Of a DNA stretch of 64,000 nucleotides, positions 15,927-32,371 are shown in pieces. The stretch is taken from NCBI GenBank assembly GCA_030065235.1, contig JASJDC010000002.1, forward strand, positions 892,001 to 956,000, written 5' to 3'. The notes below the pieces were generated by a model. The model was not told the origin of the DNA, made no database searches, and saw only the letters and a list, made by a program, of their open reading frames with translations. This DNA is from Alphaproteobacteria bacterium (GTDB taxonomy: Bacteria > Pseudomonadota > Alphaproteobacteria > UBA8366 > Aestuariispiraceae). A program made the position numbers and the translations under genes. Positions within the stretch are counted from its first letter, which is position 1, and each line of letters starts with the position of its first letter.

Positions 15927-16232
15927 CGGAACGCGACGGGTCGCTTGGCGCCTTCGCATCGCTGTGCTAAGCGCAAAGTGATACAGAAATCTGCGAAAAG
16001 CGGAAATTTGAGTGTCGCGTTAGCGGTGCGGTTATTGTGAGGGCTCGACATCGGGTTCTCGGCTCAGGGAGGAGCCCGCCGTCGCCTATGCCAGCCGATG
16101 CGCCGGTCCTTGGGTTCGGGCGCATCGCGCCGCGCCGGTTCAGCCGAGCGGTCTTGGACGGCGTCGCCATCTTCTTCCTCTTGCCATCCGCCGGCTTCAT
16201 TGCGCGCTGGGACGGGAGGTGTGGAGAACGGC
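15927..16232. other. Non-coding spacer between htpG and the acyl-CoA ligase operon
   Basis: About 300 bases separating divergent htpG and the ligase/ABC operon. The left part is AT-richer (around 15980-16035) and probably carries the operon promoter, but I cannot place a convincing -35/-10 pair. The reading frame of the ligase runs open through the right part, but the start at 16233 fits better. Confidence 0.4.
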
Positions 16233-18206
16233 ATGGCTGAAGGCGCTTCCTATCCGGACATCGCGGTCCACGACACGTTCCCGAAACTGTTGCGGCACAA
16301 TGCATCTGTGCGCGCCGACCGGGCGGCGATGCGCGAGAAGAATCTGGGCATCTGGCGCACCAGCAGCTGGGCCGAGGTCAAGCGTGAGGTCGACCGCTAC
16401 GCCGCCGGCATGGCCGAACTGGGCCTGAAGCGCGGCGATCGGGTTGCGATCATCGGCGATAACCGGCCGCGACTTTATTGGTCAATCGCCATGGCGCAGA
16501 CACTGGGCGCGGTGCCGGTCCCGATCTATCAGGACTCGGTGGCCGAGGAGATGCATTTCCCGCTGAGCCACGCCGAAGTGCGCTTCGCCATCGCCGAAGA
16601 CCAGGAGCAGGTCGACAAGCTGATGGCGCTGAAAGAGCGTCTGCCGACGCTGGAGCATGTGATCTTCGACGAACCGCGCGGCGTGCGCGACTACACGCTC
16701 GACTATCTGCATGATTACGAAGACGTGGTCGCCATGGGCGATGCGCGTTTGGCCGCCGAACCCGGCTTCGTCGACGCTCAGATCGACGCGGGAGAGGGCG
16801 CGGACACCTGCCTGATCCCCTATACGTCCGGGACGACCGGCAATCCGAAGGGCGTGCTGCTGACCCACGACAATCTGCTGACCGCCGCCTATCACGGCGC
16901 CAAATTCGAGGGGCTGCGGGAAAGCGACGAGATCCTGGCCTATCTGCCGCTCGCCTGGATCGGCGACAATGTCTTTTCGTACGCGCAGTCTTTCATTTGC
17001 GGATTTTGCGTCGCCTGCCCGGAAAGCTCCGAGACAGTCCTGACCGATCTGCGTGAGTTGGGCCCGACCTATTTCTTCGCGCCGCCGCGCATTTTCGAGA
17101 ATATCCTGACGCAAGTGTCGATCCGGATCGAGGACGCCAGCAAGATCAAGCGCGACATGTTCCACTATTTCATGGCCGTGGCGCGCCGCGTCGGCGTCGA
17201 TATTCTGGAAGGCAAGCCGGTCTCAATGAGCGACCGCCTGCTCTATCGGTTGGGCGAAATCCTGGTCTACGGCCCGCTAAAGAATGTGCTCGGCCTCAGC
17301 CGGGTGCGCATCGGCTATACGGCCGGCGAGGCGATCGGCCCGGACATCTTCATCTTCTACCGTTCGATCGGCATCAATCTGAAACAGCTCTACGGCTCGA
17401 CCGAGACCAGCGTCTTCGTGACGATCCAGCCCGACGGCGAGATCAAGCCCGACACGGTGGGCACGCCGCTGGACGGGGTCGATATCAAGATCGACCAGAC
17501 CGGCGAGTTGCTGATTAAGGGGCCGGGCATTTTCAAAGAGTATTTCAAGAACCCGGAAGCGACCGAAGAGGCCAAGGACGCGGACGGTTGGTACCGGACC
17601 GGCGACGCCGGCTTCCTCGACGAGGACGGGCATCTGAAAATCATCGATCGGGCGAAGGATGTCGGGAAACTGAATGACGGCTCGCTCTTTGCGCCGAAAT
17701 ATATCGAGAACAAGCTGAAATTCTTCCCGGAAATCCGCGAGGCGGTCGCCTTCGGCAACGGAAAGGACTATGTCGCCGCCTTCATCAATATCGATCACGA
17801 GGCGGTCGGGAATTGGGCCGAGCGTCAGGGCGTGCCCTACGCCTCCTATCAGGAACTGGCGGCGCTGCCGCAGGTCTATGACATCGTGCTGGCGCATGTC
17901 GAACAGGTGAACCGCGACTTGGCGGCGGAGGCGCGGGTGGCCGGCAGCCAGATCCACCGCTTCCTGATCCTGCATAAGATGCTCGACGCCGATGACGGCG
18001 AGATGACCCGCACCAGCAAGGTGCGCCGTCGCTTCATCGCCGAAAAATATCTGCCCCTGATCGACGGGCTTTATTCAGACGCGGGGAACGCAGTGATCGA
18101 GGCGGAGATCACCTTCGAGGACGGCCGGAAAGGCGTGGTGAAAGCGGATCTACGGATCGTCGACGCCGCCGTCGTCCTGGCCGCGACGGCGCAGGCGGCG
18201 GAATAG
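16233..18206 (+). CDS. AMP-forming long-chain-type acyl-CoA ligase, first gene of ABC operon
   Basis: 657 residues from ATG 16233, preceded by GGAGA; the frame is open 45 codons upstream but lacks family similarity. An ANL adenylating enzyme with the canonical loop YTSGTTGNPKGVLLTH (about residues 196-211), YGSTETSVF near 387 and WYRTGDAGFLDEDG near 453. Length and motifs match the FadD15-like long-chain ligase group. It heads a run of seven same-strand genes including a complete Liv-type importer. It therefore probably converts the imported carboxylic acid to its CoA thioester. Whether the substrate is fatty, aromatic or another acid is not determinable. Confidence 0.87.
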   Translation: MAEGASYPDIAVHDTFPKLLRHNASVRADRAAMREKNLGIWRTSSWAEVKREVDRYAAGMAELGLKRGDRVAIIGDNRPRLYWSIAMAQTLGAVPVPIYQDSVAEEMHFPLSHAEVRFAIAEDQEQVDKLMALKERLPTLEHVIFDEPRGVRDYTLDYLHDYEDVVAMGDARLAAEPGFVDAQIDAGEGADTCLIPYTSGTTGNPKGVLLTHDNLLTAAYHGAKFEGLRESDEILAYLPLAWIGDNVFSYAQSFICGFCVACPESSETVLTDLRELGPTYFFAPPRIFENILTQVSIRIEDASKIKRDMFHYFMAVARRVGVDILEGKPVSMSDRLLYRLGEILVYGPLKNVLGLSRVRIGYTAGEAIGPDIFIFYRSIGINLKQLYGSTETSVFVTIQPDGEIKPDTVGTPLDGVDIKIDQTGELLIKGPGIFKEYFKNPEATEEAKDADGWYRTGDAGFLDEDGHLKIIDRAKDVGKLNDGSLFAPKYIENKLKFFPEIREAVAFGNGKDYVAAFINIDHEAVGNWAERQGVPYASYQELAALPQVYDIVLAHVEQVNRDLAAEARVAGSQIHRFLILHKMLDADDGEMTRTSKVRRRFIAEKYLPLIDGLYSDAGNAVIEAEITFEDGRKGVVKADLRIVDAAVVLAATAQAAE

Positions 18207-18239: not shown

Positions 18240-19052
18240 GTGAGTGGTGTGGCGCCCGTCTCGGGACAAGCGGAACGCATCGGCGGCGAGCTGTTGCGGG
18301 TCGACAATGTCAGCCTCAGCTTCGGCGGGGTAAAAGCGCTGAGCGAGATCAGCTTTGACATCAAGAAGGGTGAAATCCGCTCGATCATCGGCCCGAACGG
18401 CGCCGGCAAATCCTCGATGCTGAATGTGGTCAACGGGTTCTACCAGGCCCAGGAAGGCTCGATCCACTACAAGGGCGTGACCTACGCGCCGATGCGCCCC
18501 TATATCGCCGCCTCAAACGGCATCGCGCGCACCTTTCAGAACATCGCCTTGTTCCGCGGCATGTCGACGCTCGACAATATCATGACGGGCCGGGTGCTGA
18601 AGATGAAGGCCAGCCTGCTGGAGCAAGCGCTCTACATGTTCCGCGGGAAAAGCGAGGAGCTTGAGCATCGCGAACATGTAGAGAAGGTGATCGATTTCCT
18701 CGAAATTCAGGCGATCCGCCGCACGCCGGTGGGCCGGCTGCCTTACGGGTTGCAGAAGCGGGTCGAACTGGGGCGCGCCCTGGCGGCGGAGCCGGACCTT
18801 CTGCTGCTCGACGAGCCGATGGCCGGCATGAATGTCGAAGAGAAGGAGGATATGTCCCGCTTCATCATCGACGTGAACGAACAGTTCGGCACGACCATCG
18901 CCCTGATCGAACATGATATGAGCGTCGTCATGGATCTGAGCGACCGGGTCGTGGTGTTGGATTACGGCAAGAAACTGGCTGACGGCACGCCGGACGAGGT
19001 GCGCGGCAACCAGGATGTGATCGACGCCTATCTCGGCGTGACCCACGACTGA
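18240..19052 (+). CDS. Liv-type ABC transporter ATP-binding protein (LivG-like)
   Basis: 270 residues from a GTG at 18240. Walker A GPNGAGKSS (about residues 50-58), the signature region LPYGLQKRVELGRAL (about 165-179) and Walker B LLLLDEPMAGMN are all present. The C-terminal GTPDEVRGNQDVIDAYLG is typical of LivG-type subunits of the branched-chain amino acid transporter (HAAT) family. It is one of two ATPases in this operon. It begins 33 bases after the ligase gene and would pair with the LivH- and LivM-like permeases downstream. Confidence 0.92.
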   Translation: MSGVAPVSGQAERIGGELLRVDNVSLSFGGVKALSEISFDIKKGEIRSIIGPNGAGKSSMLNVVNGFYQAQEGSIHYKGVTYAPMRPYIAASNGIARTFQNIALFRGMSTLDNIMTGRVLKMKASLLEQALYMFRGKSEELEHREHVEKVIDFLEIQAIRRTPVGRLPYGLQKRVELGRALAAEPDLLLLDEPMAGMNVEEKEDMSRFIIDVNEQFGTTIALIEHDMSVVMDLSDRVVVLDYGKKLADGTPDEVRGNQDVIDAYLGVTHD

Positions 19053-19074: not shown

Positions 19075-20010
19075 ATGGAATTTCTGCACGCTTTCTTCAT
19101 CGCGCCGTTTGTCGAGATGGTCGATCAGCCCTGGTTCCTGTTCGAGGTTCTGGTCGGCGGCCTGTCGGCGGGGGTGATGTATTCGCTGGTTGCGCTGGGG
19201 TTCGTTCTGATCTTCAAGGCGTCCGGCGTCTTCAACTACGCCCAGGGCGTCATGGTCCTGTTCGCCGCCTTGAATCTGGTCGGGTTGATGGAATGGGGCG
19301 TGCCGGTCTGGCTGGCGCTGATCCTGACGGTCATCATCATGATCGGTCTCGCCTTCGCGGTGGAGCGATTGGTCCTGCGCAAATTGGTGAACCAGGAACC
19401 GATCATCCTGTTTATGGCGACGATCGGCTTGGCCTTCTTCCTGGAAGGGTTCGGCGAGACGATCTGGGGCTCGGACGTGCGGCCGCTGGATATTGGCATT
19501 CCCGACGATGTCTGGTTCGTCGGCGACGCCATGCTGCAGCAGAGCGATATTTTCGCTGCGGTCGTCGCCAGTTTCCTGGTGACCGTGCTGGCCTTGTTCT
19601 TCCACTATACGCGGATCGGGCGGGCCCTGCGCGCGGTCGCCGACGATCATCAGGCGGCGTTGTCGATCGGCATTCCGCTGAACCATATCTGGATCATCGT
19701 CTGGGCGGTCGCCGGCTTTGTCGCTTTGGTCGCGGGCGTGATGTGGGGCGCGCGGCTGGGGGTTCAGTTCTCGCTGGCGATCATCGCGCTGAAGGCGCTG
19801 CCGGTCCTGATCCTGGGCGGCTTCACCTCGATCCCCGGCGCCATCATCGGCGGCTTGATCATCGGGGCCGGCGAGAAGGTGGCGGAGGTCTATTGGGGGT
19901 CGCTGTTCGGCGGCGCGATCGAGGAATGGTTCGCCTATGTCGTCGCCCTGGTCTTCCTGTTCTTCAGGCCGCAAGGCTTGTTCGGCGACAAGATTATCGA
20001 GCGCGTTTAG
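19075..20010 (+). CDS. Liv-type ABC transporter permease (LivH-like)
   Basis: 311 residues with about eight membrane segments. The early motif GGLSAGVMYSLVALGFVLIF (residues 23-42) and the later GGFTSIPGAIIGGLIIGAGE (about 245-264) are the standard signatures of LivH-type permeases. It forms the membrane channel with the next gene product. It has a GGAGAGAG-like ribosome site, lies 22 bases after the ATPase gene and shares its reading direction. Confidence 0.93.
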   Translation: MEFLHAFFIAPFVEMVDQPWFLFEVLVGGLSAGVMYSLVALGFVLIFKASGVFNYAQGVMVLFAALNLVGLMEWGVPVWLALILTVIIMIGLAFAVERLVLRKLVNQEPIILFMATIGLAFFLEGFGETIWGSDVRPLDIGIPDDVWFVGDAMLQQSDIFAAVVASFLVTVLALFFHYTRIGRALRAVADDHQAALSIGIPLNHIWIIVWAVAGFVALVAGVMWGARLGVQFSLAIIALKALPVLILGGFTSIPGAIIGGLIIGAGEKVAEVYWGSLFGGAIEEWFAYVVALVFLFFRPQGLFGDKIIERV

Positions 20011-20045: not shown

Positions 20046-21122
20046 ATGTTCTATCGTGAGGCCGGGGTCTTCAAAACAACATACAGCGACGATATGGCGC
20101 TGTTGCCGATCCCGTTGGACAAGTTTTTCGTGCTCTCGGTCATCGCCTTCATGGTGCTGGTGGTGCCCTTTATCGCCAGCGAGTATTGGCTGGAATCGAT
20201 CCTCATACCCGTGTTGATCCTCTCGCTGGCGGCGATCGGGCTCAATATCCTGACCGGCTACGCGGGCCAACTATCGCTCGGCACCGGCGCTTTCATGGCG
20301 GCCGGCGCCTATCTGGGCTACAAATTCGTCACCGCCTTTCCCGACATCAACATCGTCGTCGGCGTGCTGGTCGGCGGCCTCGCGTCCGCCATGATCGGCG
20401 CGGTCTTCGGGGCGCCGAGCCTGCGGATTAAGGGATTCTACCTGGCGGTCACGACCCTGGCCGCGCAATTCTTCCTGATCTGGCTGTTCACCAAGCAGCC
20501 CTGGTTCGTGAACTATTCGATCTCCGGCGTGCCGACGGCGCCGCCGCGCGAGATTTTCGGCTTCCTGGTGACCGGCGCCGAATCCAACGAGACGGCGCGC
20601 TATCTCTTTGTTCTCAGCTTCGTCATCGTCTTCGCCCTGATCGCGCGCAACCTGACGCGCGGCCGGATCGGTCGAAGCTGGATGGCGATCCGCGACATGG
20701 ACATCGCCGCCGAGCTGATCGGCATAAAGCCGCTGCAGACCAAACTGTCGGCCTTTGCGATCTCGTCCTTCTATTGCGGCATGGCCGGCGCGCTCTGGGC
20801 CTTCTGCTATATCAACATCGTCGAGCCGAGCGCGTTTGACATCAACCGCTCGTTTCAGATCCTATTCATGATCATCATCGGCGGTTTGGGCAGCATCCTG
20901 GGCAGTTTTCTGGGCGCCGCCTTCATCTTCACCCTGCCGATCTTCCTGAACAACGCCGCCACCGGGCTTGGGCTTGAAGTCTCGACAGCGCTGATTCGTC
21001 ATGTCGAGTTTATGATCTTCGGCGCCATGATCATCTTTTTCCTGATCGTCGAGCCGCATGGCCTGGCGCGCATGTGGTCGATCGCCAAGGAGAAATTGCG
21101 TATGTGGCCGTTCCCATACTAG
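20046..21122 (+). CDS. Liv-type ABC transporter permease (LivM-like)
   Basis: 358 residues. After a 28-residue N-terminal extension (MFYREAGVFKTTYSDDMALL) come about nine membrane segments. The LivM signatures are NILTGYAGQLSLGTGAFMAAGAY-like (about residues 67-88) and IGGLGSILGSFLGAAFIF (about 278-295). From general knowledge, N-termini of this kind occur in LivM-like subunits of ligase-associated transporters. It is the second channel subunit and is followed by a 152-base leader before the binding-protein gene. Confidence 0.92.
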   Translation: MFYREAGVFKTTYSDDMALLPIPLDKFFVLSVIAFMVLVVPFIASEYWLESILIPVLILSLAAIGLNILTGYAGQLSLGTGAFMAAGAYLGYKFVTAFPDINIVVGVLVGGLASAMIGAVFGAPSLRIKGFYLAVTTLAAQFFLIWLFTKQPWFVNYSISGVPTAPPREIFGFLVTGAESNETARYLFVLSFVIVFALIARNLTRGRIGRSWMAIRDMDIAAELIGIKPLQTKLSAFAISSFYCGMAGALWAFCYINIVEPSAFDINRSFQILFMIIIGGLGSILGSFLGAAFIFTLPIFLNNAATGLGLEVSTALIRHVEFMIFGAMIIFFLIVEPHGLARMWSIAKEKLRMWPFPY

Positions 21123-21274: not shown

Positions 21275-22588
21275 ATGTTCATCCGCAAACTGACTCTCGC
21301 GGCCGCCGGGGCCGTGATCGGGATCGCCGGCGTCGCGGCGACGGCCCAGGCCGATCAGCCGATCCCGTCGCTGGTCTATCGCACCGGCGCTTTCGCGCCT
21401 TCAGGCATCCCGTTGGCGAACGGCTTCGCCGACTATTTCAACATGATCAATCTGCGCGACGGCGGCGTAAACGGCGTCAAGCTGGCGGTCGAGGAATGCG
21501 ACACCGGTTATTCCAACGACCGGGGCGTCGAGTGCTACGACCGGACGAAATCGACCGGCGGCGGCGCCACGGTCTATAACCCCTGGTCGACCGGCATCAC
21601 TTATGCGCTGATCGAAAAAGCCACCGCCGACAAAATTCCGATCCTGTCGATGGGCTATGGCCGCACGAGCGCCGCCAACGGCAAGGTCTTCCCCTATGTC
21701 TTCAACTTCCCGGCGACCTATTGGAGTCAGGCGACGTCCGTCATTCAATATATAGCCGATCAGGAAGGCGGCCTGGACGCGCTGAACGGCAAGCGTTTCG
21801 CCTATATCTATCTCGACCATCCCTATGGGAAGGAGCCGATCCCGACGCTGGATGTGTTGGCGGAGAAGTTCGGCTTCACCTATGACAAATATCCTGTGCC
21901 CCCGGCCTCGATGACCGAGCAGAAGTCGATCTGGCTGCAGGTCCGCCGGACCCGGCCCGACTACGCCATCATGTGGGGCTGGGGCGCGATGAACGGTACG
22001 GCCGTTCGCGAAGCGGCCGCCATTCGCTTCCCGATGGACAAGTTCATCGGCAACTGGTGGTCCGGCGGGAATGACGCGGTGGTGCCGGCCGGCGACGGCT
22101 CGATCGGCTACAAGTCCGCCAGCTTCCACGGCGTCGGCACCGATTTCGGCGCCTATGAGGACATCAAGGCCCTGTACGAAGCGGGCGGCGGCGCCTCGGC
22201 GGACATGTCCGAGCATAACAACCCGCTTTGGGCGCGCGGTGTCGCCAATGCCGCCTATGTCGTCGAAGCGATTCGCACGGCGCAAGCCGAATATGGCGAC
22301 CGCGCGATCACGGGCGAAGAAATGCGCTGGGGCCTGGAAAACCTGGACCTGACCGATGCGCGCATCGCCGAGATGGGCCTGACCGGCTATATCACGCCGG
22401 TCAAGATCACCTGTGAAAACCATGAAGGCCAGAACCCGGCCATCCTGGTTCAGCAATGGAAAGGCGATCAGTGGGAGATCATCTCCGACTGGGTGCCGGC
22501 GATGACCGAAGTGGTTCAGCCGCTGATCGCTCAGGAGTCCGAGCAATATGCGCGGGAGAACAACATCACCCCGCGTGAATGCTCGTAA
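21275..22588 (+). CDS. Liv-type ABC transporter periplasmic substrate-binding protein
   Basis: 437 residues. A clear signal peptide ends at AATAQA before DQPIPSL (cleavage after about residue 26). The rest matches the Leu/Ile/Val-binding-protein-like (Peripla_BP_6) fold used by HAAT-family importers, with a longer than usual C-terminal half. Because ligases flank the transporter, the ligand is more likely a carboxylic acid than an amino acid, but this is not proven. The start has a strong AAGGAGG seven bases upstream, consistent with high expression. It sits between two hairpin elements. Confidence 0.92.
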   Translation: MFIRKLTLAAAGAVIGIAGVAATAQADQPIPSLVYRTGAFAPSGIPLANGFADYFNMINLRDGGVNGVKLAVEECDTGYSNDRGVECYDRTKSTGGGATVYNPWSTGITYALIEKATADKIPILSMGYGRTSAANGKVFPYVFNFPATYWSQATSVIQYIADQEGGLDALNGKRFAYIYLDHPYGKEPIPTLDVLAEKFGFTYDKYPVPPASMTEQKSIWLQVRRTRPDYAIMWGWGAMNGTAVREAAAIRFPMDKFIGNWWSGGNDAVVPAGDGSIGYKSASFHGVGTDFGAYEDIKALYEAGGGASADMSEHNNPLWARGVANAAYVVEAIRTAQAEYGDRAITGEEMRWGLENLDLTDARIAEMGLTGYITPVKITCENHEGQNPAILVQQWKGDQWEIISDWVPAMTEVVQPLIAQESEQYARENNITPRECS

Positions 22589-22668: not shown

Positions 22669-23508
22669 ATGGCCGAGGCCATGTCCGATACTGACCCCGC
22701 GCCCGATGCAGCAAAGTCGCTGCTCGATGTGAACAATATCGAGGTGATCTACGACCACGTGATCTTGGTTCTCAAAGGCGTTTCTCTGAGCGTGCCGGAA
22801 GGCGGCATTGTTGCGCTTTTGGGCGGCAATGGGGCCGGTAAGACGACGACGCTGAAATCGATCTCCAATCTGTTGAAGGCGGAGCGCGGCGAGGTCACCA
22901 AGGGCGCGATCACGATGGAGGGCCGCCGGCTCGACACGCTGACCGCCAATGACGTGGTCAAGATGGGCTGCGTCCAGGTCATGGAAGGCCGCCACTGTTT
23001 CGAACATCTGACCATCGAAGAGAATTTGCTGACCGGCGCCTACACGCGCGGCGGCGACCGGGGCGTCAAAGACGATCTGGAGCTTGTTTATGAATATTTC
23101 CCGCGGCTGAAAGAGCGCCGCAAGAGCTTGGCCGGCTACACGTCGGGCGGCGAGCAGCAAATGTGCGCGATCGGTCGGGCCCTGATGGCCAAGCCGAAGA
23201 TCATCCTGTTGGACGAACCGTCGATGGGTCTGGCGCCGCAGCTCGTCGAGCAGATTTTCGAGATTGTCAAAAGGCTGAACAGCCAGGAGGGCGTGACCTT
23301 CCTGCTCGCCGAGCAGAATACGACCGTCGCTCTGCGCTACGCCAAATACGGCTATATCCTGGAGAATGGCCGGGTCGTGCTCGACGGCAGCGCCGAGTCG
23401 CTGCTGAGCAACGAGGACGTGAAAGAATTCTATCTCGGCCTCTCGACTGAGGGCAAAAAGAGCTTCCGCGACGTGAAGCATTACAAACGCCGCAAACGCT
23501 GGCTCTAG
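22669..23508 (+). CDS. Liv-type ABC transporter ATP-binding protein (LivF-like)
   Basis: 279 residues. Walker A GGNGAGKTT (about residues 54-62), signature YTSGGEQQMCAIGRAL (about 157-172) and Walker B IILLDEPSMGLAPQL are all intact. The LAEQNTTVALRYAKYGYILENGR stretch is typical of LivF subunits. It carries an extra charged tail (EGKKSFRDVKHYKRRKRW) often seen in the ligase-associated subset. It completes the importer of two ATPases, two permeases and one binding protein. Confidence 0.92.
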   Translation: MAEAMSDTDPAPDAAKSLLDVNNIEVIYDHVILVLKGVSLSVPEGGIVALLGGNGAGKTTTLKSISNLLKAERGEVTKGAITMEGRRLDTLTANDVVKMGCVQVMEGRHCFEHLTIEENLLTGAYTRGGDRGVKDDLELVYEYFPRLKERRKSLAGYTSGGEQQMCAIGRALMAKPKIILLDEPSMGLAPQLVEQIFEIVKRLNSQEGVTFLLAEQNTTVALRYAKYGYILENGRVVLDGSAESLLSNEDVKEFYLGLSTEGKKSFRDVKHYKRRKRWL

Positions 23509-23551: not shown

Positions 23552-24802
23552 GTGTCGACCGGCCAATCCGACTTCTACGACGCTTTGGAAACGCGCAGCG
23601 CGGACCAGCGCGCCGCCGATCTGGCGACCGTACTGCCGGCGCAGATCGCCCACGCCAAGGCGAATACCGACTATTACGGCCGCGTCTTGGCCGAGGTCGA
23701 TCCCGCCGCGATCTCCAGCCCTGAGGCGCTTGCTGCGCTACCGGTGACGCGCAAATCCGACCTGATGGCGGAGCAGGCCGCCGCCCCGCCCTTCGGCGGC
23801 ATGACGGCGACCGCCCCTCGCGATCTGCTGCGGCTTTATCTCTCGCCCGGCCCGATCGCCGATCCGGAGGGGCGCGGCCGGGATTGGTGGCGCATGGCGC
23901 GCGCGGTCTTTGCGGCGGGCTTCCGGCAGGGTGACATCGCCCACAATTGTTTCAGCTATCACCACACCCCGGCCGGCGCGATGTTCGAAACCGCCGCCCA
24001 GGCGATCGGCTGCGCGGTCTATCCCGGCGGCGTCGGCGCCACCGAGCAACAGGTGGAAGCGATCGCTGCTTTCGGCGCCGACGGCTATATCGGCACGCCC
24101 GATTTTCTGGGCAAAATTCTCGAGCGCGCAGACGAGAGGGCGGTCGCGCTGCCGACCCTGAAAAAGGCGTTGGTCAGCGGCGGCGCGCTCTTTCCGGCGA
24201 TGCGCGAGGCCTATGCGGCGCGCGAGATCGCGACTTTGCAGTGTTACGGCACCGCGGATTTGGGCCTGGTCGCCTATGAGTCGCCGGCCTTGGAAGGCAT
24301 GATCGTCGAAGAGAAGGTGATCGTCGAGATTCTACGCCCGGGAACCGGCGATCCGGTCCCGGACGGCGAGGTCGGCGAGGTGACCGTCACCAGCTTCAAC
24401 GCCGACTATCCGCTGGTCCGCTTCGCCACCGGCGATCTCAGCGCCATCCTGCCGGGCGAGAGCCCGTGCGGCCGAACCAACAACCGGATCAAGGGCTGGA
24501 TGGGCCGCGCCGATCAGCGCACCAAGGTCAAAGGCATGTTCGTCGACCCGGCGCAAATCGACCGGGTGGTCAAATCCGACCCGCGAATCTTGAAGGCGCG
24601 GGCCGAAATCGTCCTGATCGAGCAGTCCGACGTCATGGTCGTTAAGATCGAAACAAGCGACTGCAGCCCCGATTTCGTCGATCAATTGGCCGACAGTGTG
24701 CGTCGGGAATGCAAGCTCAGCGGCAAGATCGAACTGGTTGCGCCGGGCTCTCTTCCGAACGACGGCAAGGTCATCGACGACCAGCGACAATATGAGGTCT
24801 GA
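23552..24802 (+). CDS. Phenylacetate-CoA ligase-like (PaaK family) protein with atypical P-loop
   Basis: 416 residues from a GTG at 23552 with AAGGA upstream. Overall similarity is to PaaK-type adenylate-forming ligases: RQGDIAHNCFSYHHTPAGAM (about residues 127-146), the CYGTADLGLVAYE segment (about 231-243), RFATGDLSAIL, and the C-terminal SLPNDGKVIDDQR holding the expected catalytic lysine. However, the ATP phosphate-binding loop, normally SSGTTGKP, reads YLSPGPIADPEG. Catalysis of acyl adenylation is therefore uncertain. It is the last gene of the ABC operon and may act as a ligase with a modified loop, a CoA transferase-like helper or a regulator. Confidence 0.75.
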   Translation: MSTGQSDFYDALETRSADQRAADLATVLPAQIAHAKANTDYYGRVLAEVDPAAISSPEALAALPVTRKSDLMAEQAAAPPFGGMTATAPRDLLRLYLSPGPIADPEGRGRDWWRMARAVFAAGFRQGDIAHNCFSYHHTPAGAMFETAAQAIGCAVYPGGVGATEQQVEAIAAFGADGYIGTPDFLGKILERADERAVALPTLKKALVSGGALFPAMREAYAAREIATLQCYGTADLGLVAYESPALEGMIVEEKVIVEILRPGTGDPVPDGEVGEVTVTSFNADYPLVRFATGDLSAILPGESPCGRTNNRIKGWMGRADQRTKVKGMFVDPAQIDRVVKSDPRILKARAEIVLIEQSDVMVVKIETSDCSPDFVDQLADSVRRECKLSGKIELVAPGSLPNDGKVIDDQRQYEV

Positions 24803-25820: not shown

Positions 25821-26286
25821 GATGCCCCCCCAAAGCGGCAAACTAGAACCAATCACGAATTCCGTTCGCATTACCCCAATACCAACATAAAGCGCCGTTA
25901 AGATCAATGATCAATTGCTAATAATCGAACGATCTTCGGGCGGTTTGTCGATGCGTGTGTCCCTATACCGCTTTGATATCACATCAAAAAAACGGCTTGC
26001 CTGTTATGGGCGTGAACGCCTACCGGCCAATCCGAAATCGGTCACAAAATTGCCTCAATTTATCCCGTGTAAACCCACAATTCCCACCCCATATCTCAAG
26101 CGCTGAGACCTCCCCTCTCAACGGGGCCCTATCCCCGACATTCAAGGGCTCCGTGGCGGTTCTGACCAAACCGTCGCAAATACAGACGGCCGCCGATTGA
26201 TCCCCCTTTCCGGCGGCCGTCGCCTTTTCGGGGTGTCGTTTCTGTCTGTTCTTTCTAACCGCAGCGAAACCCGGTCTAATGCCGAT
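25821..26286. other. Non-coding, AT-richer spacer before ccmA
   Basis: About 470 bases with no convincing gene; short open frames here lack ribosome sites and family similarity. The left half is distinctly AT-richer than its surroundings and includes TAATAAT near 25920. The right end contains a strong inverted repeat (26185-26221). The promoter for the ccm operon must lie in the right part, but I cannot place it. Confidence 0.4.
26185..26221 (+). terminator. Inverted repeat with short T tract, possible terminator of an unannotated transcript
   Basis: GACGGCCGCCG (26185-26195) and CGGCGGCCGTC (26211-26221) form a perfect 11-bp stem with a 15-base loop, followed by GCCTTTTC. There is no plus-strand gene upstream for it to terminate, so it may end a small RNA or act in the ccmA leader. 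Confidence 0.4.
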
Positions 26287-26943
26287 ATGCGGTTTTGGGG
26301 CGAGGAATTGGCGTGTTTTCGCGGCGGCAGGCTGGTGTTTGACCGCCTGTCTTTCTCCGTCGCCGGCGGTGAGGCCTTGCTGCTGACAGGCCCGAACGGC
26401 AGCGGCAAATCCTCGCTTTTGCGCCTCATGGCCGGGCTGATCGAGCCCTTGTCCGGCGCCCTTCACCGAGATGACGCGCCGATCGCCGACGACCCGGCCG
26501 ATCATCGCGCCGCGACCTACTATCTCGCCCATGCCGAAGCGATCAAGGCGCCGCTGACCGTCAGTGAGGATATCGCCTTCTGGGCCGCCATGAATGGCGG
26601 GGCCGGCGACGACGAGTCGATCCGGGCGGCGGTCGCGGCGATCGGCCTGTCGGCGCAGAGCGCAATTCCGGGCCGGTATCTCTCCGCCGGTCAGAAGCGG
26701 CGAACGGCGCTGGCGCGACTGGCGACGGCGCGCGCCGATCTCTGGCTGTTGGACGAACCGTCGGTCGGCTTGGACACGGCCTCGATCGACCGGCTGCGCG
26801 CCCTGATCGCCGAGCACCGCGCCAAGGGCGGCGCGGTGGTGGCGGCGACCCATGTCGATCTCGGCCTGGACGGCGCCGGGAGGCTCGACCTCGACGCCTT
26901 CGCCGTCGCCCCGGACGCGCTTGTAGGCGAGGACGCCGCATGA
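26287..26943 (+). CDS. ccmA: Haem exporter / cytochrome c maturation ATPase CcmA
   Basis: 218 residues from ATG 26287. A short ABC ATPase with Walker A TGPNGSGKSS (about residues 36-45), signature LSAGQKRRTALARL (about 132-145) and Walker B LWLLDEPSVGLD. It starts the cytochrome c System I operon and drives release of holo-CcmE in complex with CcmB, CcmC and CcmD. The frame is open 30 codons upstream, but the family begins here. Its stop overlaps the ccmB start (ATGA at 26940). Confidence 0.95.
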   Translation: MRFWGEELACFRGGRLVFDRLSFSVAGGEALLLTGPNGSGKSSLLRLMAGLIEPLSGALHRDDAPIADDPADHRAATYYLAHAEAIKAPLTVSEDIAFWAAMNGGAGDDESIRAAVAAIGLSAQSAIPGRYLSAGQKRRTALARLATARADLWLLDEPSVGLDTASIDRLRALIAEHRAKGGAVVAATHVDLGLDGAGRLDLDAFAVAPDALVGEDAA

Positions 26944-27608
26944 TCCGCGCGATGCGGGCGGTTTTCATGCGCGATCTGCGTCTGGTCTTTCGCCAGGGCG
27001 CCGATCTGGCGCTGGCCTTGGCCTTTTTCCTGATCGCCGCCAGCCTGTTCCCGCTCGGCGTCGGGCCGTCGCCAGAGACGCTCGCGATCGTCGCATCGGG
27101 CGTCGTCTGGGTCCTATCGCTGCTGTCGGTGATGCTGTCGCTGGATCGCTTATTTCAGTCCGACTACGACGACGGGGCGCTGGAATTGATGGCGATGACG
27201 GCGACGCCGATGGCGTTGCTGGTGTTGGCCAAGGCGTCGGCGCATTGGGTGACGACCGGCTTGCCGCTGACCCTGCTGGCGCCGGTGATCGCGATGATGC
27301 TGAACCTGCCGGCCGATGGGCTTCTGGCGCTGGTCTTGGGGTTGCTTTTGGGCACGCCGGCGATGAGCCTGATCGGCGCCATCGGCGCGGCTCTGGTGCT
27401 GGGCGCGCGGCGCGCCAGCCTGCTGACCGCGCTGCTGGTTTTGCCGCTTTATATTCCGGTCCTGATTTTCGGCGTCTCAGCGGTGGACGCGGCTGTAGCG
27501 GGGCTGCCCTGGCGTCCCTATATGCTGATCCTGGCGGCGATCAGCATGGCGTCCATCCCGTTGGCCCCTTGGGCGGCCGGCGCTGCGGTGCGCTCGGCGT
27601 TCCAATGA
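26940..27608 (+). CDS. ccmB: Cytochrome c maturation permease CcmB
   Basis: 222 residues with six predicted membrane segments and the usual CcmB length. The early MRDLRLVFRQGADLALALAF-like stretch and the central LLLGTPAMSLIGAIGAAL match the family. It is the membrane partner of CcmA and is translationally coupled to it by a 4-base overlap. A 171-base gap with no gene separates it from ccmC. Confidence 0.95.
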   Translation: MIRAMRAVFMRDLRLVFRQGADLALALAFFLIAASLFPLGVGPSPETLAIVASGVVWVLSLLSVMLSLDRLFQSDYDDGALELMAMTATPMALLVLAKASAHWVTTGLPLTLLAPVIAMMLNLPADGLLALVLGLLLGTPAMSLIGAIGAALVLGARRASLLTALLVLPLYIPVLIFGVSAVDAAVAGLPWRPYMLILAAISMASIPLAPWAAGAAVRSAFQ

Positions 27609-27779
27609 TCGGCGCTTGAATCTAACGCCGCCCCCGCCGATAACCCTTGAATTTCTAAGGGGTATTTCGGGCGAATGGATGGTCGCATCGTGCCGGAACT
27701 GGTTGAATTTGTTGCCCGGTTTCCGCATGTTGGATCTGTCCGGCATGTGGCCGGATCGTGACGATGAGCAACGCTGACC

Positions 27780-28544
27780 ATGCACCGGTTCGCCAATCCA
27801 ACACGGTTCTTTCGCATTTCGAATGCAATCCTGCCCGTCGCGGCGGCGGGCTTCGCTGTTTTGACCGTTTTGGGCCTGTATTACGGTTTGATCGCCTCGC
27901 CAGCGGACTACCAGCAGGGCGATACGGTGCGGATCATGTATATCCATGTGCCGGCGGCCTATATGGCGGTGATGATTTACGCCGTGATCGCCGGGGCCAG
28001 CGCCAGCGTCCTGATTTGGAAACATCCCTTGGCGGAGATCACGGCTCGCGCCGCTGCGCCGGTCGGCTTGGCTTTCACCTTCCTTTGCCTCGCCACCGGG
28101 TCGCTCTGGGGCAAGCCGATGTGGGGAACCTGGTGGGTCTGGGACGCACGCCTGACCTCGGTCTTGATCCTGTTTTTCCTCTATATCGGCTATATGACCC
28201 TGGCCAATGCGTTTGACGAGCCGGGCCGCGCCTCGAAGCCGGCGGCGATCTTGGCGCTGGTCGGCGTGGTCAATTTGCCGATCATCAAATTCTCGGTCGA
28301 TTGGTGGAACACGCTGCATCAGCCCGCTGCGCTGATAAGGCTGGACGGGCCGACCATCGCGCCGGAAATGTTGACGCCGCTGTTCCTGATGATGGGCAGC
28401 TTCACCTGCTTCTTCATCCTGGTCCTCGGGCTGCGCATGCGGTCCGAATATGCGGCGGCGCGTCTGCGCAACGCAATGAGCCGGGGCGTGACGACCCCGG
28501 ACGGCGTCCCGAACGGTCCTGTAGGGCGGGAGCCTGCAGCATGA
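27780..28544 (+). CDS. ccmC: Haem-handling protein CcmC
   Basis: 254 residues, six membrane segments. The tryptophan-rich periplasmic motif WGTWWVWDARLTS (about residues 119-131) and the flanking haem-ligating histidines (in YIHVPAAYM and NTLHQPAAL) are present. CcmC binds haem and loads it onto CcmE. The C-terminal 30 residues are variable and polar. Its stop codon overlaps the ccmD start. Confidence 0.96.
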   Translation: MHRFANPTRFFRISNAILPVAAAGFAVLTVLGLYYGLIASPADYQQGDTVRIMYIHVPAAYMAVMIYAVIAGASASVLIWKHPLAEITARAAAPVGLAFTFLCLATGSLWGKPMWGTWWVWDARLTSVLILFFLYIGYMTLANAFDEPGRASKPAAILALVGVVNLPIIKFSVDWWNTLHQPAALIRLDGPTIAPEMLTPLFLMMGSFTCFFILVLGLRMRSEYAAARLRNAMSRGVTTPDGVPNGPVGREPAA

Positions 28545-28750
28545 GCGCATTCTTCGAGATGGGGGGGCACGCCGTCTATATCTGGCCGTGCTACGCTCTT
28601 GCGGCGGCGGTGATGGTCTATTTGTTGGTCGGGTCGGTGAGCGCCATGCGCCGCAACGAAGCGATGGCGAAGGCGTTGGATGTGTCCCGACGCCCGCGGT
28701 CAGAAGGGGGAGCGAACACCAGGATTGCAGGAGGGTCGGCTGATGCGTAA
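28541..28750 (+). CDS. ccmD: Small membrane protein CcmD
   Basis: 69 residues with one membrane segment (about 14-33, IWPCYALAAAVMVYLLVG) after the GGHAVYIW segment typical of CcmD, then a basic cytoplasmic tail. CcmD helps release holo-CcmE from the CcmABCE complex. It overlaps ccmC by 4 bases at its start and ccmE by 8 bases at its end. It is longer than the enterobacterial protein because of the tail. Confidence 0.9.
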   Translation: MSAFFEMGGHAVYIWPCYALAAAVMVYLLVGSVSAMRRNEAMAKALDVSRRPRSEGGANTRIAGGSADA

Positions 28751-29201
28751 GGGCGCGGCGCGCAAGAAACAGCGGATGCTGATCGTCTTCTCCGGACTCG
28801 CCATGCTCGGCGTCGCCGTGTCCCTCGTGCTGGTCGCTTTCGAGGACAATGTGACCTTCTTCTATGGCCCGACGGAAGTCCGCGATCAGGCGGTCGGCGA
28901 GGGGACCAAATTCCGGCTCGGCGGATTGGTCGAAGAAGGCAGCGTCAATCAGAACGGCGCGACGACGGAATTCACCATCACCGATCTGAATGCGACCGTG
29001 CGCGTCGCCTATACCGGCATCTTGCCGGACCTGTTCCGAGAAGGCCAAGGCATCGTCGCGCAAGGCGCGATCGACTCGAACGGCGTCTTCAAGGCGGACG
29101 AAGTCCTGGCCAAGCATGACGAGAATTACATGCCCGCCGAGGCGGTCGAAGCGATGAAGCGGGCCGGCACCTGGCAGCATGCAACCTCTTCCGCGCAATA
29201 G
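28743..29201 (+). CDS. ccmE: Haem chaperone CcmE
   Basis: 152 residues from ATG 28743. An N-terminal membrane anchor (about residues 12-32) is followed by the OB-fold periplasmic domain. The haem-binding histidine is H125, in LAKHDENYMP, the form of the motif found in most bacteria. CcmE carries haem covalently and delivers it to CcmF and CcmH. Confidence 0.97.
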   Translation: MRKGAARKKQRMLIVFSGLAMLGVAVSLVLVAFEDNVTFFYGPTEVRDQAVGEGTKFRLGGLVEEGSVNQNGATTEFTITDLNATVRVAYTGILPDLFREGQGIVAQGAIDSNGVFKADEVLAKHDENYMPAEAVEAMKRAGTWQHATSSAQ

Positions 29202-29234
29202 GCGCGGGGGCTAGCGGGAAGGCGCGTCGACCTG

Positions 29235-31253
29235 ATGGAAGGATTTAGCTTCGCCGAGCTCGGGCATTTCGCGCTGATCCTGGCGCTGGTGTGCGCCAGC
29301 ATCCAGTCTGTCGTGCCGCTGATCGGGGCGGCGCGCGGCGATGCGGCGATGATGGCGACCGCGCCGATGACGGCGCTGGCTCAGTTCCTGGTCCTGGCCG
29401 TGTCCTTTGCGGCTTTGACCAACGCCTTCGTCACCAGCGACTTCTCGGTGCTGAATGTGGTCCAAAACTCACATTCCCTGAAGCCGATGCTTTATAAGGT
29501 CTCTGGTGTTTGGGGCAATCATGAGGGCTCGCTGCTGCTCTGGGTGACCGTGCTCGCCCTATTCGGCGCGTTGGTCGCCCTTTTCGGCCGCAACCTGCCG
29601 CCTGGGTTGAAGGCGCGGACGCTCGCCGTCCAGGCCATGGTCTCGGTCGGTTTCCTACTGTTTATGATCCTGACCTCGAACCCGTTCGAGCGCGTTTTTC
29701 CGCCGCCTTTTGAAGGCAACGATCTCAATCCGTTGCTGCAGGATCCCGGTCTCGCGCTGCATCCGCCGATGCTCTATATCGGCTATGTCGGCCTCTCGAT
29801 ATCCTTCTCCTTCGCCGTGGCCGCCCTGATCGAGGGCAAAGTGGACGCCGCTTGGGCGCGCTATGTCCGGCCCTGGACGCTGCTCGCTTGGGCTTTCCTG
29901 ACCGGCGGCATCGCGCTGGGTTCCTGGTGGGCGTACTACGAGTTGGGCTGGGGTGGTTTCTGGTTCTGGGACCCGGTCGAGAACGCCAGTTTCATGCCCT
30001 GGCTGGCGGCGACCGCGCTTCTGCATTCGGCGATCGTGGTGGAGAAGCGGGACACGCTGAAAAGCTGGACCATCCTGCTCGCCATCATCGGCTTCTCGCT
30101 CAGCCTGATCGGCACCTTCCTGGTTCGCTCCGGCGTGCTGACCTCGGTCCACGCCTTTGCGACGGACCCGGACCGCGGGCTGTTCATCCTGATCCTGCTT
30201 GTGATCGCGATCGGCGGTTCGCTGGCGCTTTACGCCTGGCGCGCGCCGCAGCTTCAAGGCGGAGGCCTCTTCCGGCCGATCAGCCGCGAGGGCGCGCTGG
30301 TTTTCAACAATCTGCTGCTGACGACCGCGACGGCGACGGTGCTGTTGGGGACGCTCTATCCGCTGTTTCTCGACGCGATGGATGGCTCGAAAGTCTCGGT
30401 CGGACCGCCCTATTACAATCTGACCTTTGTGCCGCTGATGGCCCCGCTGTTGATCGCGCTGGGGGTCGGGCCGCTGTTGAGCTGGAAACGCGCCGATCTT
30501 TGGGCCGCGATGGCGCGCCTCAAGCTGGCCGCCTTGGTCGTCCTTGTCGTCGCCGCGCTCAGCCTGATTATGCTGGAAGGCGACCGGGCCTACGCCACGC
30601 TCGGCCTGATCCTATCGGGCTGGGTGGTCTCGGCCTCGCTGGTCGAGTTCCTGCAGCGCGCCGGCCTGGGCCGAACCGGACCCGGCGCCATGGTCAGACG
30701 CATGATCGGTCTGCCGCGCGCCGCCTGGGGCATGATGCTGGCGCATGTCGGCGTCGGGATTCTGGTCGCGGGCGCGACGGGCGCGTCGCTTCTGACCACC
30801 GAGGTTATCACCACCATGCGGCCCGGCGAGACCATGCAGCTCAAGAGCCTGAACCTGGAATTCGAGAGCCAGCAAGAGGTGCGCGGGCCGAACTATTTCG
30901 CCCTGCGCGGCAATTTCGTCGCCCGCGATGCGGATGGCGATGTGATCGCCCGGTTCGCGCCTGAAAACCGACGCTACATCGCCGGCGGTCAGGAGACGAC
31001 CGAGGCCTCGATCCGGTCCAGCCTGACCCGCGACCTCTATGTTGCGCTGGGCGATCCGGACGGGACCGGCGGCATGACGGTCCGCGCCTATATCAAGCCG
31101 TTCGTGCCTTGGCTCTGGATCGGTTCGGCGCTGATGATGCTGGGCGGATTCGTCTCCTTGAGCGATCGGCGGCTGCGGATCGGCGCGCCCAAGCGCAGTG
31201 GCGCCAGGGCGGGCGGAGACGCGCGCGCCGCCGCGCCGGCGCCGGCCGAATGA
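29235..31253 (+). CDS. ccmF: Cytochrome c haem lyase subunit CcmF
   Basis: 672 residues with about fifteen membrane segments, the usual size. The WWD domain reads WGGFWFWDPVENASFMPW (about residues 238-255), and the conserved WGNHEGSLLLWV stretch lies near residue 94. CcmF attaches haem to apocytochrome c together with CcmH and CcmI. The C-terminal tail after the last segment is rich in alanine, proline and arginine. Confidence 0.97.
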   Translation: MEGFSFAELGHFALILALVCASIQSVVPLIGAARGDAAMMATAPMTALAQFLVLAVSFAALTNAFVTSDFSVLNVVQNSHSLKPMLYKVSGVWGNHEGSLLLWVTVLALFGALVALFGRNLPPGLKARTLAVQAMVSVGFLLFMILTSNPFERVFPPPFEGNDLNPLLQDPGLALHPPMLYIGYVGLSISFSFAVAALIEGKVDAAWARYVRPWTLLAWAFLTGGIALGSWWAYYELGWGGFWFWDPVENASFMPWLAATALLHSAIVVEKRDTLKSWTILLAIIGFSLSLIGTFLVRSGVLTSVHAFATDPDRGLFILILLVIAIGGSLALYAWRAPQLQGGGLFRPISREGALVFNNLLLTTATATVLLGTLYPLFLDAMDGSKVSVGPPYYNLTFVPLMAPLLIALGVGPLLSWKRADLWAAMARLKLAALVVLVVAALSLIMLEGDRAYATLGLILSGWVVSASLVEFLQRAGLGRTGPGAMVRRMIGLPRAAWGMMLAHVGVGILVAGATGASLLTTEVITTMRPGETMQLKSLNLEFESQQEVRGPNYFALRGNFVARDADGDVIARFAPENRRYIAGGQETTEASIRSSLTRDLYVALGDPDGTGGMTVRAYIKPFVPWLWIGSALMMLGGFVSLSDRRLRIGAPKRSGARAGGDARAAAPAPAE

Positions 31254-31322
31254 TCCGCTCGTTCGCCCGCCGACTTTGACCCCACGTTTTCGACAGCACC
31301 AAAGACCCGATAGGATCGCGCC

Positions 31323-31853
31323 ATGCGTCGCTTGTTATTCGTCGCTCCTCTTGTGATCTTCGGCGTGCTCGCCGGCTATTTCGCCGTACAGCTCGGCGAC
31401 GATCCCAGCATCGTGCCTTCCGCCTTGATCGACCGGCCGATGCCGGGCATCGACACGCCGCCGCTTCTGACGGACAAGCCCGGCGTAAAGACCGAGGAAT
31501 TGATCGGCGAGGTCAGCGTCCTGAATGTCTGGGCCTCTTGGTGCATTCCCTGCCGAGCCGAACATCCGCTGATCAATCAACTGGCCCAGCGCGACGGGAT
31601 CACGGTCCATGGTCTGAACTACAAGGATAAGCGCGCTGATGCGGTGGCCTGGCTCGATGAGCTTGGCGACCCCTATGCGCGGATCGGATTCGACGAAAGC
31701 GGGCGCGCCGGGATCGACCTCGGCGTCTATGGTGTGCCGGAGACCTATATTATCGGACCGGACGGCCATATCCGCTACAAGCGGGTCGGTCCGATCACGC
31801 CGCAAATCCTCGAAGACGATATCCTGCCGCTGATCCGGGACTTGAAGTCATGA
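31323..31853 (+). CDS. ccmG: Thiol:disulfide interchange protein CcmG/DsbE
   Basis: 176 residues. An N-terminal membrane anchor (about 4-23) is followed by a thioredoxin-fold domain with the active site C74-I-P-C77 in WASWCIPCRAEHP and the GVPETYIIG cis-proline strand. It reduces the CXXCH motif of apocytochromes for haem attachment. The DsbD-like reductase gene at 41.3 kb is a candidate electron source. It overlaps ccmH by 4 bases. Confidence 0.96.
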   Translation: MRRLLFVAPLVIFGVLAGYFAVQLGDDPSIVPSALIDRPMPGIDTPPLLTDKPGVKTEELIGEVSVLNVWASWCIPCRAEHPLINQLAQRDGITVHGLNYKDKRADAVAWLDELGDPYARIGFDESGRAGIDLGVYGVPETYIIGPDGHIRYKRVGPITPQILEDDILPLIRDLKS

Positions 31854-32371
31854 GGATGCTCGCCCTTTGCGCCCTTCTGTTTGGCGCGCTGGCCGTTTGG
31901 GGCGGGCCGGCCGGGCCGGCCCTGGCGGTGCAGCCGGACGAGGTGTTGGACGATCCGGCGCTGGAGTCGCGCGCCCGCGACATCTCTAAAGAGCTGCGCT
32001 GTCTCGTCTGCCAGAATCAAAGCATCGACGATTCCAACGCCGAACTGGCGCGCGATCTGCGCGTCCTGGTGCGCGAGCGGCTGGTCGCCGGCGACAGCAA
32101 CAAGGAGGTCTTCGCCTTCGTGACCGACCGCTATGGCGACTATGTGTTGCTGCGGCCGCCGGTCAACGCCGAGACCCTGGTTCTTTGGGGCGGACCCTTC
32201 GTTTTGTTCGGGATCGCCGCCGTGAGCGTCGCGCTCTGGATGCGCGGGCGGTCGCGCCGGAATGCCTTGATGGCGGAGGCCGCGGGCGCGACCGGCCTGT
32301 CGGACGCCGAGGAAGCGCGGCTGGCGGCCCTAATGGGCGATGACAGAGACATGAAAGAGAAGCGCCCGTGA
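31850..32371 (+). CDS. ccmH: Cytochrome c maturation protein CcmH (CcmL)
   Basis: 173 residues: a signal or anchor at the N-terminus, the redox motif LRCLVCQNQSIDDSNAELA with C51 and C54, a second membrane segment around residues 107-127, and a short cytoplasmic tail. It corresponds to the N-terminal part of the E. coli CcmH, the rest being the separate ccmI here. It overlaps both neighbours by 4 bases. Confidence 0.96.
   Translation: MRMLALCALLFGALAVWGGPAGPALAVQPDEVLDDPALESRARDISKELRCLVCQNQSIDDSNAELARDLRVLVRERLVAGDSNKEVFAFVTDRYGDYVLLRPPVNAETLVLWGGPFVLFGIAAVSVALWMRGRSRRNALMAEAAGATGLSDAEEARLAALMGDDRDMKEKRP

What the first reader, a model, noticed from the sequence alone, without database searches (positions are those of the whole stretch)
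23552..24802. PaaK-like protein with a changed ATP phosphate loop
The family-wide SSGTTG loop is replaced by SPGPIADPEG, while the C-terminal catalytic lysine and the GDL segment are kept. Without the normal loop, ATP-dependent adenylation may be lost or altered. The gene ends an operon that already has a normal ligase, so the protein may have a different task (acyl carrier, CoA transfer, gating). I believe related ligase-associated transporters have similar loops, but I could not check.
Basis: partly seen in the sequence, partly recalled or inferred. Interest (0 to 1): 0.55.

Follow-up and report, generated by a model that had tools for sequence, protein, structure and literature searches.

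The report
Ligase-like partner of carboxylate importers
A protein that looks like a phenylacetate-activating enzyme but has a remodelled ATP site is conserved in many proteobacteria and, in the genomes sampled, always occurs with a normal acid-activating enzyme and its import pump, so it is probably a repurposed partner of that system and not an ordinary enzyme.

Summary
The 416-aa PaaK-like protein (23552-24802, +) has SPGPIADPEG at residues 98-107 where 19 of 22 compared paralogues have [ST]SGT[TS]. It is not an isolated mutation: S-P-G is invariant in 106 distinct type I sequences (window included), and the loop maps to one origin on the tree. The clade also changes other ligase-site positions (S235A, E236D, hinge D322Q). 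The A10 lysine kept in the window is Leu, Val, Ile or Arg in 19 of 106. A sister subfamily (type II, 5 of 5) lacks it and loses the A8 Asp. The gene closes an ACS-LivG-LivH-LivM-SBP-LivF operon whose own ligase keeps its motifs. In 398 sampled Pseudomonadota genomes the SPGP gene and this ligase occur in the same 67. Where the gene sits elsewhere (4 of 58 examined), an intact ACS-Liv operon is present. Three genomes have a second complete ACS-Liv operon but one SPGP gene, and SPGP genes have been re-paired with different transporter families, so it probably acts in trans. Best reading: a non-adenylating, ligase-derived accessory of CoA-ligase-coupled carboxylate import that binds the ligase's acyl-CoA or nucleotide products. 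The tie to the ligase/importer is well supported; the biochemical step is inferred.

The parts
23552..24802 (+). SPGP-type PaaK-like protein (416 aa), last gene of the operon
23843..23872 (+). altered phosphate loop SPGPIADPEG (residues 98-107); S98 P99 G100 invariant in 106 distinct sequences
23948..23971 (+). A4 region CFSYHHTP; Y136, H137 and P140 invariant (canonical PaaKs GYGLFTGG)
24251..24265 (+). A5 region TADLG replacing canonical LSE (S235A, E236D)
24428..24439 (+). A7 TGDL, Asp295 invariant (ribose-binding Asp by ANL homology; role recalled)
24503..24535 (+). A8/hinge GRADQRTKVKG; hinge Asp (role recalled) replaced by invariant Gln322
24761..24781 (+). A10 DGKVIDD; Lys406 present here, another residue in 19 of 106 distinct sequences
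16098..18206 (+). operon acyl-CoA synthetase (PF00501) with intact YTSGTTGNPKG loop; start more likely 16233
18240..19052 (+). LivG-type ABC ATPase
19075..20010 (+). LivH-type permease
20046..21122 (+). LivM-type permease
21275..22588 (+). periplasmic substrate-binding protein (Peripla_BP_6)
22669..23508 (+). LivF-type ABC ATPase

Best explanation
The protein belongs to a distinct clade of PaaK-like ANL proteins (SPGP clade) that has probably given up ATP-dependent adenylation and become a trans-acting accessory of CoA-ligase-coupled Liv-type carboxylate importers. Proposed working: the binding protein and LivHMGF bring in a carboxylic acid; the operon ligase (ACS) adenylates and thioesterifies it; the SPGP protein, which keeps the A7 Asp, a conserved A8 segment (type I) and a conserved, remodelled acyl pocket, binds the product or intermediate (acyl-CoA, acyl-AMP, or AMP plus CoA). 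It then either withdraws or relays that product, or uses its occupancy to tune ligase and import. Shown by comparison: the conserved altered site, the intact partner ligase, strict co-occurrence in the sample, genomes where it is unlinked from or outnumbered by ACS-Liv operons, and re-pairing with several transporter families. Inferred: loss of adenylation, the ligand, and the relay or regulatory role.
For: S-P-G invariant in 106 distinct sequences; one origin of the loop on a tree built without the loop and C-terminal columns, SH-aLRT 96. Changes at positions invariant in 13 canonical PaaKs: S99P, T102I, G137H, T140P, S235A, R294G, D322Q, N330F in type I, with E236D in 98 of 106 and E in 8; type II shares most of them (S99P, G137H, T140P, E236D, R294G, N330F in 5 of 5, S235A in 4 of 5) but residue 322 varies (A 3, Q 1, D 1). 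Lys406 changes state at least 11 times on the thinned type I tree; 5 of 5 type II proteins lack it and have G for the A8 Asp321. The partner ACS keeps [TS]SGTT at A3 in 62 of 62, YGxTE at A5 in 63 of 63 and the A10 Lys in 62 of 62 aligned copies. SPGP gene and ACS occur in the identical 67 of 398 genomes. 54 of 58 widely fetched genomes have the gene beside Liv genes; the 4 others carry a complete ACS-Liv operon elsewhere. G257, G274 and G372 have a second complete ACS-Liv operon with no SPGP gene in the 16-18 kb fetched; their only other PaaK-like match at E up to 1e-20 has an SSGTT loop. LivM families A and B are each one clade, but the SPGP proteins of B-type rows are not (3 changes, AU p = 1.2e-4). 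Five of five type II loci examined also lie with ACS-Liv genes. dN 0.17 against dS 1.36 versus L032.
Against: No activity data. Asp295, Gly318, Arg319 and, in 87 of 106, Lys406 are kept, and Glu is kept at 236 in 8 of 106, so some nucleotide chemistry may remain. R294G and I325K bring back residues that I recall as common in other ANL enzymes. Re-pairing with different transporters argues against a fitted physical contact with any one permease. Downstream catabolic genes differ between loci, so there is no common substrate in sight. The predicted structure was too poor around the site to model it (mean pLDDT 68.5).
Confidence: 0.6

Rival explanations
1. It is an ATP-independent enzyme of the same pathway: the old thioesterification half-site works on acyl-CoA made by ACS (hydrolysis, acyl transfer or rearrangement), with the invariant His137 and the reshaped pocket as new catalytic parts.
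For: Pocket and A8 residues are as strictly conserved as in a working enzyme (Y136, H137, P140, A235, G318-Q322 and K325 at 100% of 106). Its unlinked and portable distribution is what a soluble pathway enzyme would show. In Xanthobacter it follows a 4HBT thioesterase gene and an acyl-CoA mutase set.
Against: Type II, which also lives with ACS-Liv, has G for Asp321 and no A10 lysine. Downstream catabolic genes differ widely between the loci looked at, so no common acyl-CoA product is evident.
Confidence: 0.2
2. It is still an adenylating CoA ligase with an unusual but working phosphate loop, giving the operon a second ligase for another substrate.
For: PF00501 is matched above its cut-off. Asp295 is invariant and Lys406 is present in the window protein and in 87 of 106 sequences.
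Against: The loop, the A5 Ser/Glu and the hinge Asp are changed together, the lysine is lost many times, and in the 398-genome sample the family never occurs without a normal ligase.
Confidence: 0.12
3. It is a passive structural or folding partner of ACS with no ligand.
For: Strict co-occurrence with ACS in the sample.
Against: Conservation is concentrated in the old active-site motifs. One copy coexists with two ACS families about 40% identical, and the SPGP proteins of B-type rows are not one clade.
Confidence: 0.08

Closest known systems
Phenylacetate-CoA ligase PaaK (TIGR02155; PDB 4r1l, 2y4o, 2y27)
   Same: Homology over nearly the whole length (4r1l E 1.2e-43, TIGR02155 110.6 bits); A7 Asp; C-terminal GK in this member.
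   Different: SPGP loop, A5 TAD, hinge Gln, remodelled A4; far below the TIGR02155 cut-off (110.6 against 646.3 bits).
2-hydroxyisobutyryl-CoA synthetase (PDB 6hdw)
   Same: Sequence relative, E 3.5e-22.
   Different: Named a synthetase by its depositors. The SPGP gene only occasionally neighbours acyl-CoA mutase genes (L134, L136, L040).
Liv/HAAT ABC importers with a neighbouring CoA ligase
   Same: LivG, LivH, LivM, LivF and a binding protein in one operon with a ligase. In R. palustris, Liv-type binding proteins (COG0683) did not shift with Leu, Ile or Val but bound other amino acids, aromatic, fatty or dicarboxylic acids (PMC3223731, passages).
   Different: An added ligase-derived gene with an altered site at the end of the operon; the searches named in Tried and rejected found no description of it.
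Pseudoenzymes in general (review PMC10211241, seen only as a search listing and start of abstract)
   Same: Conserved catalytic motifs lost from an enzyme family that is under purifying selection.
   Different: Loss of activity has not been tested here.

Membership tests
PaaK (TIGR02155 / NF041878) | Curated whole-protein score cut-off | tested here: not met
   110.6 against 646.3 bits; 137.6 against 700 bits
PaaK-like / ANL superfamily (PF00501) | Pfam gathering score | tested here: met
   33.6 against 29.9 bits
ATP-dependent acyl-CoA ligase (mechanism) | Phosphate loop [ST]SGTTG | tested here: not met
   SPGPIADP; S-P-G in 106 of 106 distinct sequences
ATP-dependent acyl-CoA ligase (mechanism) | A5 [ST]E with Mg-binding Glu (role recalled) | tested here: not met
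   TAD in the window; A235 100% of type I, residue 236 D 98, E 8 of 106
ATP-dependent acyl-CoA ligase (mechanism) | A7 Asp (ribose; role recalled) | tested here: met
   D295 100%
ATP-dependent acyl-CoA ligase (mechanism) | Hinge Asp in A8 (role recalled) | tested here: not met
   Q322 in 106 of 106 type I
ATP-dependent acyl-CoA ligase (mechanism) | A10 catalytic Lys | tested here: inconclusive
   present in the window; K in 87 of 106 type I, absent in 5 of 5 type II
ATP-dependent acyl-CoA ligase (mechanism) | Adenylation activity | not testable with these tools
   needs an assay
Liv-type ABC importer operon | Two ATPases, two BPD_transp_2 permeases, Peripla_BP_6 | tested here: met
   below the LivG/LivF/LivH/LivM model cut-offs, so branched-chain amino acid transport is not implied
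Pseudoenzyme | Fold retained, activity absent | not testable with these tools
   sequence features only

The most novel reading that the evidence does not exclude
A two-component principle for carboxylate import: an active CoA ligase and a non-adenylating ligase paralogue that reads or takes over the ligase's acyl-AMP/acyl-CoA product, couples it to Liv-type ABC import, serves several importer families in trans, and has been kept for this role across Alpha-, Beta- and Gammaproteobacteria in at least two subfamilies.
Probability: 0.35. Interest if true: 0.8.

Novelty: new variant of a known kind. Interest (0 to 1): 0.58.

Why it matters
Such genes are annotated as 'AMP-binding protein', 'phenylacetate--CoA ligase family protein' or similar in the plasmid records seen and would be modelled as ligases. 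If the reading holds, those annotations mislead and an uptake system found in about one in six sampled Pseudomonadota genomes (67 of 398) has an unrecognised component. The system is easy to test: one operon, single copy, clean partner genes, and natural cases where one copy coexists with two importers. It would also give a bacterial ligase pseudoenzyme whose partner is known.

Tried and rejected
Isolated mutation or sequencing slip: rejected, 106 distinct sequences share the loop. Pseudogene: rejected, open frame and dN well below dS (dS is above 1, so the ratio is rough). In-frame stops reported for several homologues: for the loci of these that I looked at, the protein tail shows the stop to be terminal. 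Substrate from neighbours: acyl-CoA mutase/MeaB genes in L134, L136 and L040, leucine/valine genes in L132, CaiB and carboxylase-like genes in L159 and a large beta-oxidation cluster in L171 suggest branched or unusual carboxylic acids, but most loci surveyed have no common pathway neighbour, so no substrate is claimed. Unlinked SPGP genes beside ferrochelatase or aminotransferase genes gave no pathway clue. Structure: AlphaFold2 on 12 sequences gave mean pLDDT 68.5 and pTM 0.51, with residues 98-111, 233-257, 271-278 and 280-321 under 50, so no site geometry is used and no fold search was run. Literature: ten searches were answered, six aimed at the module and four at neighbours or the altered site; no description of the module was found, and the library lacks most subscription papers. 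Passages of PMC6122825, PMC12632250, PMC6515984 and PMC3223731 were seen; only PMC6122825 and PMC3223731 are used. Rows dropped: 129 family loci were reduced to 106 distinct by core sequence, window included; the tree was thinned at 80% identity to 79 type I rows plus 22 paralogue loci. Wide flanks were fetched for 58 of the 66 SPGP-positive genomes besides the window's own. For the re-pairing test I set by hand the transporter label of rows D-G and of four unlinked genes (L106 as B, L073, L080 and L129 as A, from their genomes' own operons). In some searches only the best few candidates per genome were scored.

Full report
What is there. The window gene at 23552-24802 (+) encodes a 416-aa PaaK-like ANL protein and closes a seven-gene, same-strand operon with gaps of 22-152 bases: ACS, LivG, LivH, LivM, binding protein, LivF, PaaK-like. 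Its closest solved relatives are phenylacetate-CoA ligases (4r1l, E 1.2e-43), but it scores far below the PaaK model cut-offs. The loop reads SPGPIADPEG at residues 98-107. The genome has one other PaaK-like match, 30% identical, with a normal SSGTTG loop.

The loop is a clade character. Matches at E up to 0.001 occur in 38 of 59 related genomes, ordinary PaaKs included. At E up to 1e-60 the gene is found in 67 of 398 Pseudomonadota genomes, the window's own included. Named relatives are in Hwanghaeella and in metagenome-assembled Burkholderiales, Limnohabitans, a gammaproteobacterium, Planktomarina and others; all 11 lie beside LivF. Others are on plasmids of Azospirillum, Methylibium, Xanthobacter, Aminobacter, Roseovarius and Paracoccus. 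In 106 distinct sequences S98, P99 and G100 are invariant. On a tree built without the loop and C-terminal columns, all SPG rows are one side of a branch (82 of 101 rows; SH-aLRT 96; one change). One paralogue, OG_L155, has a very long branch and sits next to them, so the nearest outgroup is unsure.

The rest of the site. Compared with positions invariant in 13 canonical PaaKs, type I shows fixed changes S99P, T102I, G137H, T140P, S160G, S235A, R294G, D322Q, I325K and N330F, and E236D in 98 of 106. Most are shared with type II. R294G and I325K restore residues that I recall as common in other ANL enzymes, so they need not be new inventions. Asp295 is kept throughout. Lys406 is K in 87 and L, V, R or I in 19 of 106, at least 11 changes on the thinned tree. 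Published work summarised in PMC6122825 (passages) ties the loop and this lysine to the adenylation step. The A8 segment is nearly invariant in type I (GRADQ and K325 in 106 of 106).

A second subfamily. Type II proteins (G011, G009, G195, G423 and a Sulfitobacter plasmid; about 35% identical to type I) share SPGP in 5 of 5, TAD in 4 of 5 (TGD in G423), have G in place of Asp321 in 5 of 5 and no A10 lysine in 5 of 5. All five loci lie with ACS-Liv genes: last gene of the operon in three, a few kb away on the other strand in G423, and about 15 kb away in one catabolic cluster in Sulfitobacter alexandrii. The other plasmid type II hits were not examined for context.

Linkage to the ligase. Searching the window ACS in the same 398 genomes (E up to 1e-120) gives 67 genomes, the identical set. 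These genomes are related to each other (47 of 213 genera), so the effective number is smaller, but gene linkage alone does not explain it: in G354, G388, G070 and G224 the SPGP gene lies about 13-187 kb from the ACS gene, and the ACS-Liv operon there is complete. The partner ACS keeps [TS]SGTT, YGxTE and the A10 Lys in all 62-63 aligned copies, though some of these copies, B-family ones, read SGTT[SA] where others read SGTTG. A search with a B-family ACS (339 genomes) found 12 genomes with that ligase at 59% identity or more, all in the SPGP-positive set; G127 and G231 have only a shorter 38% ligase and no SPGP hit.

In trans and portable. G257, G274 and G372 each carry a second complete ACS-Liv operon with no SPGP gene in the fetched 16-18 kb. 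Each has one SPGP gene; the only other PaaK-like match at E up to 1e-20 has SSGTT. LivM of families A and B form one clade each, while the SPGP proteins of the 16 B-type rows do not (3 changes; AU p = 1.2e-4; quick tree, group named from the transporter label). The protein is thus tied to having an ACS-Liv system, not to one transporter lineage. That one copy actually serves two systems is inferred from these counts.

Mechanism. The pattern (phosphate loop, A5 and hinge remodelled together, adenylation lysine dispensable, A7 Asp kept, A8 conserved in type I, never without a normal ligase in the sample) fits a protein that no longer makes acyl-AMP itself but still binds acyl-CoA, acyl-AMP or AMP/CoA. 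I favour a relay or sensor role next to the ligase that pulls import forward, with an ATP-independent enzyme of the same pathway as the main rival. The substrate is unknown; neighbours point to branched or unusual acids in some lineages only. PMC3223731 (passages) reports that Liv-type binding proteins often bind aromatic, fatty or dicarboxylic acids, consistent with a carboxylate importer.

What is not shown. No activity, binding or structure; the model is poor at the site. Roles of motifs A5, A7 and the hinge are recalled; those of the loop and lysine are from PMC6122825. No description of this module was found in the ten searches named; subscription literature was not searchable.

Noticed in passing
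L134 8367-11947 and L136 850-3900: B12-dependent acyl-CoA mutase subunits and MeaB-type genes lie directly upstream of the SPGP and ACS-Liv genes in Xanthobacter autotrophicus Py2 plasmid pXAUT01 and Roseovarius sp. THAF8; a similar mutase lies downstream in L040.
   Followed up: partly
L032 from about 456 and 13 other loci of the survey; L135 3836-4510: A gene cluster that I read as Crp/Fnr-type regulators (no family search made) recurs in the fetched flanks of 14 loci; Aminobacter L135 has an annotated Crp/Fnr regulator just upstream.
   Followed up: no
L111 (G337): Mixed operon: ACS nearer to the B family (58%) with A-family Liv genes and a type I SPGP gene, suggesting ligase exchange.
   Followed up: no
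part of the B-family ACS copies: The ligase loop reads SGTT[SA] instead of SGTTG while the A5 and A10 motifs are kept.
   Followed up: no
L073, L129, L080, L078, L096, L102: A ferrochelatase gene lies near the SPGP gene both with and without the ACS-Liv genes, as if the operon had moved away and left the SPGP gene behind.
   Followed up: partly
window 26197-32371: Genes downstream of the operon read like a cytochrome c maturation cluster (ABC ATPase, permeases, CcmE-, CcmF-, thioredoxin- and CcmH-like); read from the ORF list only.
   Followed up: no
L171 1559-48667: Sulfitobacter alexandrii plasmid cluster with many acyl-CoA dehydrogenases, CaiB-type transferases, thiolase/OB-fold pairs and TRAP transporters around a type II SPGP gene; 21 Pseudosulfitobacter plasmid records also match the type II query, most of those listed from diatom cultures.
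   Followed up: partly
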